From: Enterobacter sp. RHBSTW-00175
GTDB lineage: Bacteria > Pseudomonadota > Gammaproteobacteria > Enterobacterales > Enterobacteriaceae
Direction: 5' to 3'
Length of the DNA stretch: 64,000 bases
NCBI RefSeq assembly: GCF_013927005.1
Contig: NZ_CP055930.1
Span: 1,736,001-1,800,000 of the forward strand
The notes under the pieces are model-generated. The model was not told the DNA's origin, did not search any database, and was given only the letters and a program-made list of their open reading frames with translations. Positions 54,092 through 56,190 of the stretch are shown here, in pieces (positions within the stretch are counted from its first letter, which is position 1; the number at the start of each line of letters is the position of its first letter). The translations under genes were made by a program, and so were the position numbers.

Positions 54092-55226
54092 TCAATTTCC
54101 TGCAAGCTGATGGAGCGCGGTAATGACGCGGGTTGCGTCGTCATGCGTCATGTCCGGGAAAAGAGGGAGTGAACAAATACGCGCGCTGTTCCATTCGGAG
54201 TTCGGGAGCGAGACTTCAGGGAAACGCTCGCGATAGTATTTTTGCGTATGAGCAGCACGGAAATGCAGACCAGTACCAATGCCTTTTGCTTTCAGCGCGT
54301 CCATTAACGCGTCACGTGAGATCCCACAGCGGGCTTCATCAACGCGAATGATAAAAAGATGCCATGCATGGACATGCGGCCAGGCTGGAATACGCAGCGG
54401 CTCGAAAGGTGTATCCGCAAGCTCCGTCAGATAACGTTCAGCGATTTCGCGACGGCGCGCGTTGGCTTCGCTCAATTTACCCAACTGGACCAGCGCCAGC
54501 GCGGCGTTGATATCCGCGAGGTTGTATTTATACCCCGGGGAGATAACTTCTGCCTGCGGCGCGCGGCCGTGAGTCTGGCGGTCATAAGCATCAACACCAA
54601 GCCCGTGGAACTTGAGACTGCGGATACGCTGTGCCAGTTGTTCGTCGTCCGTCACCACTAAACCGCCTTCCGCGCAGGTCATGTTTTTGATCGCGTGGAA
54701 AGAGAAGATAGCGGTACCCTGCCAGCCAACATGGCGATTTTTGTAGTAAGTGCCTGCTGCGTGGGCTGCATCTTCAATAACAGGTATACCGTGACGTTCG
54801 CTTATCGCGTGAATTGCATCGATATCAAAAGGCGCACCCGCATAATGCACGGGGATGATGGCTTTGGTACGGGGAGTAATAGCGGCTTCGATGGCCTCTG
54901 GCGTTACCATCAGCGTGTCTTTGTCGACATCGATCATCACGGGTGTTGCGCCCAGCAGCACAATCATATTGAGGGTCGACACCCAGGTTAGAGAAGGGGT
55001 AATGACTTCATCACCGGGGCCAATGCCCATCGCCATCAGCGTGACGTGCATCCCGGCGGTTGCAGAGCAGACAGCAATCGCATGACGATTCCCCGTCAGC
55101 TTACAAAATGCCTCTTCAAGCTCCTGATTTTTTGGCCCTGTGGTGATCCAGCCCGACATCAAAACGTCCTGAAGCGCCGCAATTTCCTCAGCGCCCATCG
55201 ACGGTCGCGAAAAAGGCAGAAAATCA
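54092..55226 (-). pseudogene. arnB: UDP-Ara4O aminotransferase, 5' end cut off by IS1
   Basis: PLP-dependent DegT/DnrJ aminotransferase that converts UDP-Ara4O to UDP-Ara4N. The remaining frame holds 377 residues from DFLPFSRPSMGAEE to the normal C-terminus, with the PLP lysine in FSFHAIKNMTCAEGG. IS1 has replaced what precedes it: the native start ATG AGT GAT TTT C lies on the far side of IS1 at 55995-56007, giving an original product of 379 residues. A fortuitous in-frame TTG inside the IS1 end (55240) could start a five-residue substitute N-terminus (MAASP), but no good ribosome binding site precedes it. Rated as disrupted. Confidence 0.9.
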
Positions 55227-55281
55227 GGTGATGCTGCCAACTTACTGATTTAGTGTATGATGGTGTTTTTGAGGTGCTCCA

Positions 55282-55557
55282 GTGGCTTCTGTTTCTATCA
55301 GCTGTCCCTCCTGTTCAGCTACTGACGGGGTGGTGCGTAACGGCAAAAGCACCGCCGGACATCAGCGCTATCTCTGCTCTCACTGCCGTAAAACATGGCA
55401 ACTGCAGTTCACTTACACCGCTTCTCAACCCGGTACGCACCAGAAAATCATTGATATGGCCATGAATGGCGTTGGATGCCGGGCAACCGCCCGCATTATG
55501 GGCGTTGGCCTCAACACGATTTTCCGCCATTTAAAAAACTCAGGCCGCAGTCGGTAA
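55282..55557 (+). CDS. insA: IS1 protein InsA
   Basis: 91 residues, zinc-finger and helix-turn-helix DNA-binding protein of IS1 (SCPSCSATDGVVRNGKST, CSHCRKTW; ATARIMGVGLNTIFRHL). It represses IS1 and binds the terminal repeats. The full transposase is made by a -1 frameshift into insB. Confidence 0.97.
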   Translation: MASVSISCPSCSATDGVVRNGKSTAGHQRYLCSHCRKTWQLQFTYTASQPGTHQKIIDMAMNGVGCRATARIMGVGLNTIFRHLKNSGRSR

Positions 55558-55979
55558 CCTCGCGCATACAGCCGGGCAGTGACGTCATCGTCTGCGCGGA
55601 AATGGACGAACAGTGGGGATACGTCGGGGCTAAATCGCGCCAGCGCTGGCTGTTTTACGCGTATGACAGGCTCCGGAAGACGGTTGTTGCGCACGTATTC
55701 GGTGAACGCACTATGGCGACGCTGGGGCGTCTTATGAGCCTGCTGTCACCCTTTGACGTGGTGATATGGATGACGGATGGCTGGCCGCTGTATGAATCCC
55801 GCCTGAAGGGAAAGCTGCACGTAATCAGCAAGCGATATACGCAGCGAATTGAGCGGCATAACCTGAATCTGAGGCAGCACCTGGCACGGCTGGGACGGAA
55901 GTCGCTGTCGTTCTCAAAATCGGTGGAGCTGCATGACAAAGTCATCGGGCATTATCTGAACATAAAACACTATCAATAA
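55476..55979 (+). CDS. insB: IS1 transposase part InsB
   Basis: 167-residue frame containing the IS1 catalytic domain (CAEMDEQWGYVGAKSRQRWL, WMTDGWPLYESRLKGKLHVI, QRIERHNLNLRQHLARL). It is normally expressed as the InsAB' fusion through the A-rich slip site in the overlap with insA (TTTAAAAAACTC near 55529). Intact, so the element should be active. Confidence 0.96.
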   Translation: MPGNRPHYGRWPQHDFPPFKKLRPQSVTSRIQPGSDVIVCAEMDEQWGYVGAKSRQRWLFYAYDRLRKTVVAHVFGERTMATLGRLMSLLSPFDVVIWMTDGWPLYESRLKGKLHVISKRYTQRIERHNLNLRQHLARLGRKSLSFSKSVELHDKVIGHYLNIKHYQ

Positions 55980-55994
55980 GTTGGAGTCATTACC

Positions 55995-56007
55995 GAAAAT
56001 CACTCAT
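55995..56007 (-). pseudogene. arnB: Severed start of arnB
   Basis: On the minus strand ATG AGT GAT TTT C, preceded by AAGGAAATTAATA. This is the original arnB start codon and ribosome binding site, left on the promoter side of IS1. The eight bases nearest IS1 are the target duplication. Confidence 0.9.
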
Positions 56008-56173
56008 TATTAATTTCCTTGCTGTATTAAAGGCGTCATCTTTTACTGCGCTGTCGTAATGGGCAGCTCAATGGGATCATGCAAGATGGAATTTAAATAA
56101 ATACCAAATAAAATTTAGTCGTTGCTTCATTTATGTCAACAAACCATCAACTAAGGCAAAGTAGTCCTCTTTT

Positions 56174-56190
56174 CTTAGGAAAAAATTAAG
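56174..56190 (-). promoter_or_regulatory. PmrA box upstream of arnB
   Basis: On the minus strand CTTAAT-TTTTT-CCTAAG, matching the PmrA consensus YTTAAK-N5-YTTAAK with one mismatch. It lies 167 bases from the original arnB ATG. PmrA/BasR activates arn in related bacteria under Fe3+, acid or low-Mg2+ stress. Confidence 0.7.

What the first reader, a model, noticed from the sequence alone, without database searches (positions are those of the whole stretch)
55219..56190. IS1 has cut the arn operon off from its start codon and PmrA-type promoter
IS1 (768 bp, 8-base duplication GAAAATCA) lies after the fourth codon of arnB. The original ATG AGT GAT TTT, its ribosome binding site and a PmrA box remain on one side; the other 377 codons and arnCADTEF are on the other. 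IS1 genes read against arn, and the end facing arnB offers a -35-like TTGGCA but no good -10. Expected result is weak, PmrA-independent or absent lipid A aminoarabinosylation, so polymyxin susceptibility, unless IS1 excises precisely. Established: arn and PmrA function. Inference: the phenotype.
Basis: partly seen in the sequence, partly recalled or inferred. Interest (0 to 1): 0.75.

Follow-up and report, generated by a model that had tools for sequence, protein, structure and literature searches.

The report
IS1 insertion uncouples the arn operon
A common jumping DNA element (IS1) has landed right behind the start codon of the first gene of an Enterobacter lipid A-modifying operon, cutting the operon off from its normal switch and start signal; this is a real and probably recent event but of an ordinary kind.

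Summary
Confirmed. A complete 768-bp IS1 (55227-55994) with an 8-bp duplication sits behind arnB codon 4. The end of each flank, looked up separately, lies uninterrupted in Enterobacter soli, overlapping there by exactly those 8 bp. It is one of 19 identical IS1 copies in this genome; 12 of the 19 carry 8-9-bp duplications. All seven arn proteins otherwise score above their family cut-offs, so the insertion looks recent.

Best explanation: transcriptional and translational uncoupling. The promoter region, Shine-Dalgarno and ATG stay behind IS1; no good hybrid promoter forms. Susceptibility is plausible but may not be a change: the one E. soli isolate in PMC10350281 was already susceptible.

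Contig C3 carries mcr-10, also split, after codon 507, by an ISEc36-like element, so two polymyxin loci are IS-interrupted in one genome. IS hits in resistance loci are known, including an IS3-truncated mcr-10 (PMC7067168). Expression and phenotype remain unmeasured.

The parts
55227..55994 (+). IS1, complete 768-bp copy
   Evidence: 18 further identical copies in the genome
55219..55226 (.). target duplication GAAAATCA, arn side
55995..56002 (.). target duplication GAAAATCA, promoter side
55227..55249 (+). IS1 left terminal inverted repeat (faces arnB)
   Evidence: pair I1
55972..55994 (-). IS1 right terminal inverted repeat (faces the arn promoter)
   Evidence: pair I1
55282..55557 (+). insA-like reading frame (name recalled)
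55476..55979 (+). insB-like reading frame (name recalled)
54092..55226 (-). arnB body, codons 3-379 (377 codons plus stop)
   Evidence: (NF008658, 740.6 bits, cut-off 631)
55238..55240 (-). in-frame TTG inside IS1, possible cryptic start; no Shine-Dalgarno at a usable distance
55995..56007 (-). orphaned arnB start: ATG and the first codons, now running into IS1 as a 5-codon frame (MSDFR)
56016..56020 (-). native Shine-Dalgarno AAGGA
56174..56190 (-). PmrA-box-like CTTAAT-TTTTT-CCTAAG
   Evidence: CTTAAT in 14 of 14 and CCTAAG in 13 of 14 aligned sequences, this strain included
56158..56163 (-). likely -10 element TACTTT, 10 nt after the box
   Evidence: TACTTT or TACCTT in 13 of 14, TAGCTT in one; role inferred
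56112..56139 (-). sigma-70-like TTGACA-16-TAAATT
   Evidence: 10 of 12; 3 such sites in the region against 1.7 expected, so weak
53107..54144 (-). arnC
51128..53110 (-). arnA
50229..51131 (-). arnD
48577..50232 (-). arnT
48242..48580 (-). arnE
47841..48245 (-). arnF

Best explanation
A copy of IS1 transposed into arnB just behind its start codon, in a lineage where IS1 has multiplied, and uncoupled the otherwise intact arnBCADTEF operon from its regulated promoter, leader, Shine-Dalgarno and ATG. Transcripts from the old promoter now meet a 5-codon frame that stops inside IS1 and then 768 nt of antisense IS1 RNA (sequence: shown; loss by polarity: inferred). On the arn side IS1 offers a -35-like TTGGCA but no good -10, and an in-frame TTG without Shine-Dalgarno, so ArnB and the downstream enzymes should be made at very low level and without PhoP/PmrA induction (inferred). 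Expected outcome: little or no Ara4N on lipid A, and no inducible colistin resistance if the lineage had it (inferred from deletions in other Enterobacter species).
For: IS1 boundaries, inverted repeats and 8-bp duplication; both flank ends uninterrupted in E. soli with exactly 8 bp of overlap; 18 more identical IS1 copies, 12 of the 19 with 8-9-bp duplications; only two 75%-identical fragments of IS1 in G056, the nearest relative by arnB; promoter block conserved across 14 sequences and left on the far side; TTGGCA has no -10 above 2 of 6, the best pair in 55127-55300 is reached by 500 of 500 single-base shuffles, and no Shine-Dalgarno stands before the TTG against AAGGA 8 nt before the native ATG; all seven arn proteins above their NCBIfam cut-offs; no second PF01041 match of that strength in the genome (451 bits, next 293). 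Passages of PMC9832134, PMC9664853 and PMC10350281: arn or arnT deletion abolishes colistin (hetero)resistance in the Enterobacter strains tested. PMC12893162 (passage): an arn-positive isolate with a divergent arn promoter lacked inducible resistance.
Against: No transcript, protein, lipid A or MIC data. TTG starts do work in bacteria and the fusion would keep residues 3-379, so low-level ArnB is not excluded. A simple hexamer count misses weak or extended -10 promoters. No strong intrinsic terminator was found in the antisense IS1 stretch (one weak stem there; 2 sites in the region against 1.7 expected), so read-through from the old promoter is possible. The state of the culture is unknown.
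Confidence: 0.85

Rival explanations
1. IS1 rewires rather than silences: leaky transcription (old promoter read-through or IS1-borne) plus the in-frame TTG gives low constitutive ArnB, so some Ara4N is still made but no longer regulated.
For: Frame open from a TTG in IS1 through all of arnB, replacing only Met-Ser by Met-Ala-Ala-Ser-Pro; IS1 ends carry a -35 that can form hybrid promoters (passages of PMC8764528, PMC9330008); no strong terminator found.
Against: TTGGCA finds no -10 better than 2 of 6 at spacings 15-19; no Shine-Dalgarno before the TTG. PMC8764528 (passages) reports activation only where a -10 is well placed, and for IS1 in the same direction as the gene; here it is opposite.
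Confidence: 0.1
2. Assembly artefact: IS1 placed in arnB by mistake.
For: 19 identical copies make IS1 a hard repeat for assembly; reads could not be examined.
Against: Perfect 768-bp element, perfect 8-bp duplication that matches the uninterrupted relative; assembly of 4 contigs, completeness 100.
Confidence: 0.03
3. Not exclusive of the best explanation: the insertion changes the phenotype little, because the lineage hardly induces arn with colistin anyway.
For: The one E. soli isolate in PMC10350281 (passages) was colistin susceptible; that paper reports less than fourfold arnT induction in susceptible isolates; arnB was not found at E 1e-100 in 25 of 61 Enterobacter genomes.
Against: One isolate only; the promoter block is conserved in relatives and the operon is intact, which argues that arn was under selection until recently.
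Confidence: 0.35

Closest known systems
IS insertions in chromosomal genes of polymyxin resistance in Enterobacterales, such as mgrB
   Same: Single IS copy that breaks or uncouples a gene of the lipid A pathway.
   Different: In mgrB the insertion raises resistance (title of PMC11955652 in the listing); here it hits the effector operon, which should lower it.
IS1-bounded amplification of arn in E. coli B (PMC11253626, passages read)
   Same: IS1 and the arn operon; many IS1 copies; polymyxin phenotype.
   Different: There IS1 copies flank an intact arn and amplify it; here IS1 sits inside arnB. Nearest same-orientation copies are about 245 kb and 99 kb away, but by coordinates any amplified arn would still begin at IS1 (inference).
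Clean loss of arnBCADTEF in the E. hormaechei clade (PMC9832134, passages read)
   Same: Loss of the Ara4N pathway in Enterobacter, with low colistin MIC.
   Different: Whole-cassette loss versus an IS1 that leaves the genes nearly intact.
IS1 hybrid promoters (Prentki 1986, seen only as a reference in PMC9330008; PMC8764528, passages)
   Same: IS1 end with outward -35 next to a gene.
   Different: No matching -10 here; IS1 is opposite to arnB.
mcr-10 truncated by an IS3-type element in E. coli AZ74 (PMC7067168, passages read)
   Same: mcr-10 broken by an IS3-family element, as on contig C3 here.
   Different: Different host; that genome's arn state was not looked at here.

Membership tests
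IS1 (insertion sequence) | 768-bp element with about 23-bp imperfect inverted repeats (recalled) | tested here: met
IS1 (insertion sequence) | 8-9-bp target duplication (recalled) | tested here: met
   8 bp here; of 19 identical copies 12 have 8 or 9 bp and 7 have none
IS1 (insertion sequence) | insA/insB transposase frames | tested here: inconclusive
   open frames of 91 and 167 aa at 55282-55557 and 55476-55979; names recalled, no family search was made with them
ArnB / arnBCADTEF | all seven proteins above curated equivalog cut-offs, in order | tested here: met
   (ArnB as the piece 54092-55225)
PmrA-activated promoter | CTTAAN-N5-CTTAAN-like direct repeat near -35 (consensus recalled) | tested here: met
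   CTTAAT-N5-CCTAAG, one mismatch in the second half, conserved in aligned relatives
PmrA-activated promoter | PmrA binds and activates | not testable with these tools
   literature passages report PmrAB dispensable for colistin resistance in tested Enterobacter (PMC9832134, PMC9664853)
IS1 hybrid promoter | outward -35 plus a -10 at 16-18 bp in the flank | tested here: not met
   TTGGCA with at best 2 of 6; no such site listed on the arn strand at the junction
Loss of arn function | no Ara4N on lipid A, colistin susceptible | not testable with these tools
   needs the strain

The most novel reading that the evidence does not exclude
The two interruptions, IS1 in chromosomal arnB and an ISEc36-like element in mcr-10 on contig C3, are convergent: this lineage is under selection to shed charge-masking of lipid A altogether, so that a genome which screens as arn-positive and mcr-10-positive is in fact functionally negative for both.
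Probability: 0.12. Interest if true: 0.55.

Novelty: new member of a known kind. Interest (0 to 1): 0.33.

Why it matters
Gene-presence screens would probably call this genome arn-positive, and mcr-10-positive or partial, while both loci are interrupted by insertion sequences. In Enterobacter, arn presence is used to explain colistin (hetero)resistance (PMC9832134, PMC12893162, passages), so such a genome is a natural exception that tests whether presence or expression matters. PMC8853513 (passages) also ties the arn operon to meropenem tolerance in E. cloacae, so an arn-off strain could be less tolerant (inference).

Tried and rejected
Second arnB copy that would compensate: not found, next PF01041 match scores 293 against 451 bits. 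Hybrid promoter: rejected on hexamer matches. Structured RNA at the junction hiding or exposing the TTG: 177 of 200 shuffles fold at least as well. IS1 as an old resident of the lineage: unlikely, G056 has only two fragments. Insertion into a decaying operon: rejected, all seven proteins above cut-off. Same insertion elsewhere: not seen in the 80 loci kept of 370; other strains of the same species were not available, so strain frequency is unknown. The interrupted mcr-10 junction was not seen in the rows shown, 40 of 1472 records and 15 of at least 5000 (limit reached); the rest were not seen. Four diverged IS1 copies were fetched (in L099-L101) but not examined for duplications. In one search four of nine flanking proteins got no family match at E 1e-20, and the phosphodiesterase piece and the glycogen phosphorylase piece are below their equivalog cut-offs. 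Literature: nine answered searches; in their listings and in passages of ten papers I saw no report of IS1 inside arnB. One search was not used. The E. soli phenotype rests on one isolate.

Full report
Observation. The window holds a complete 768-bp IS1 at 55227-55994 with imperfect terminal inverted repeats and the 8-base duplication GAAAATCA on both sides. The element's frames read on the + strand; arn reads on the - strand, so the left end of IS1 faces arnB and the right end faces the arn promoter. The 25-nt ends of the arn-side flank and of the promoter-side flank, looked up one at a time in Enterobacter soli ATCC BAA-2102 (L013, 99% identical ArnB), overlap there by exactly the 8 duplicated bases. 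Of 80 arnB loci kept from 370 found, 79 have ATG as the second codon before the matched stretch, one has GTG three codons before it, and none has an exact 20-nt IS1 end within 600 bp. The event is a normal IS1 transposition and not chance.

Genome context. The window lies in an unnamed 5.57-Mb genome of 4 contigs. IS1 occurs 23 times, 19 of them identical over the full length, this copy included. Of those 19, 12 have 8- or 9-bp target duplications and 7 have none, which suggests later recombination or adjacent rearrangement (inference). In a draw of 60 Enterobacter genomes, the own one included, 23 have any match to IS1, small fragments counted; only up to 8 places per genome were scored there. 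The nearest relative by ArnB, G056 (99%), has only two fragments of about 90 bp at 75% identity. So IS1 has probably multiplied recently in this lineage. Other copies lie next to or inside gspF, gsiC and a formate dehydrogenase alpha frame (pieces above their cut-offs) and frames like glycogen phosphorylase and a cyclic-di-GMP phosphodiesterase (pieces below equivalog cut-offs).

What is left of arn. All seven proteins score above their NCBIfam equivalog cut-offs (ArnB as the piece on the arn side). In arnB the insertion leaves codons 3-379, because the duplication copies codons 3 and 4 and the bases next to them. The frame continues into IS1 to a TTG at 55240 and would give Met-Ala-Ala-Ser-Pro in place of Met-Ser. 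There is no Shine-Dalgarno at a usable distance before that TTG (only TAAG directly abutting it), while the native ATG has AAGGA 8 nt upstream. The orphaned native start now codes for MSDFR and stops in IS1. No second PF01041 match of similar strength is present.

Promoter. In an alignment of this strain's upstream flank with 13 Enterobacter and Lelliottia loci (A1) the block CTTAAT-N5-CCTAAG is nearly invariant: first half in 14 of 14, second half in 13 of 14, followed ten bases on by TACTTT or TACCTT in 13 of 14. This is what a PmrA box is expected to look like (consensus recalled). All of it remains behind IS1. The IS1 end facing arnB has TTGGCA, 5 of 6 to a -35, but the best -10 at 15-19 bp is 2 of 6, and the best pair in 55127-55300 is reached by 500 of 500 single-base shuffles. 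The consensus scan lists no promoter on the arn strand inside IS1 or at the junction. The antisense IS1 stretch contains one weak terminator-like stem, no more than chance, so read-through is not excluded.

Regulator. The passages that I read of PMC9832134 and PMC9664853 state that PhoPQ and arn, but not PmrAB, are required for colistin resistance or heteroresistance in the E. xiangfangensis and E. cloacae strains tested; PMC10350281 (passages) adds seven isolates in which phoPQ or arnT deletion abolishes it, and PMC8853513 (passages) states that phosphorylated PhoP directly regulates arn in E. cloacae. In this genome phoQ, a phoP-like frame beside it (named by eye), mgrB (47 aa), a PmrB match over its cut-off, eptA and eptB look complete; pmrA was not examined.

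Phenotype. Deletion data in other Enterobacter make loss of inducible colistin resistance the natural expectation. PMC12893162 (passage) reports an arn-positive isolate with a divergent arn promoter that lacked inducible resistance, which also points to expression. Two results weaken the word 'loss'. First, the one E. soli isolate in PMC10350281 is listed among colistin-susceptible isolates. Second, arnB is not found at E 1e-100 in 25 of 61 Enterobacter genomes searched, the own one included in the 61, in keeping with the clean arn losses that PMC9832134 describes, so Enterobacter without arn are not rare.

A second interrupted locus. A search for phosphoethanolamine transferases found, besides eptA and eptB, an mcr-10 on contig C3 (68,715 bp). 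It matches the MCR-10 model over positions 1-508 of 539 and falls just below its cut-off (1237.1 against 1250 bits). Compared with an mcr-10.1 plasmid of E. roggenkampii (L112) the gene breaks after codon 507 and resumes after a 1330/1331-bp element with a 5-6-bp duplication. A second identical copy of the element follows 578 bp further on in the same orientation. ISEc36-family transposases are annotated under the match downstream of mcr-10 in 10 of the 15 plasmid rows listed. Uninterrupted mcr-10.1 genes are common: all 40 rows listed (of 1472 records with any match) are annotated MCR-10.1. An IS3-truncated mcr-10 has been described before (PMC7067168, passages). Reports that I read in passages give mcr-9/mcr-10 little effect on colistin MIC in Enterobacter (PMC10350281, PMC12893162), while the abstract of PMC7067168 in the listing gives a 4-fold rise from cloned mcr-10. 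Whether MCR-10 lacking about 31 C-terminal residues works is unknown.

Verdict. The mechanism, uncoupling from promoter and start site, is the best reading; full silencing is inferred. As a kind of event it is known. What lifts it slightly above routine is that two polymyxin-related loci in one genome carry independent IS insertions, which a presence/absence screen could score as positive twice. With 23 IS1 copies, chance is an adequate explanation, and I give convergent selection 0.12.

Noticed in passing
own genome contig C3, L113:8735-10255 and 11586-11690 (C3:28734 onward): mcr-10 split after codon 507 by an ISEc36-like element; second identical copy of the element 578 bp downstream.
   Followed up: partly
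L001, L002, L005, L007, L009, L096, L097: Seven of 19 identical IS1 copies lack a target duplication; right flanks of L096 and L097 share a 9-bp inverted match, as after an IS1-bounded inversion; the frames there look fimbrial by eye (inference).
   Followed up: no
L010: Another IS1 sits at the very start of gsiC (8-bp duplication GAATTATG), an arrangement like that in arnB.
   Followed up: partly
L017 (NZ_SJOO01000009.1): Record titled Enterobacter wuhouensis encodes arnB with the conserved upstream block, whereas a passage of PMC9832134 lists E. wuhouensis among those lacking arn.
   Followed up: no
L047: Record titled Chryseobacterium sp. 18061 carries an enterobacterial arnB with the same start region as Citrobacter sp. 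18056 (L046); probably mislabelled or contaminated.
   Followed up: no
L091 (NZ_CP102605.1): arnB on a record titled as a 927-kb Pantoea plasmid.
   Followed up: no
genus Enterobacter: arnB found at E 1e-100 in 36 of 61 species genomes only (own included; a few of the 61 are incomplete).
   Followed up: partly
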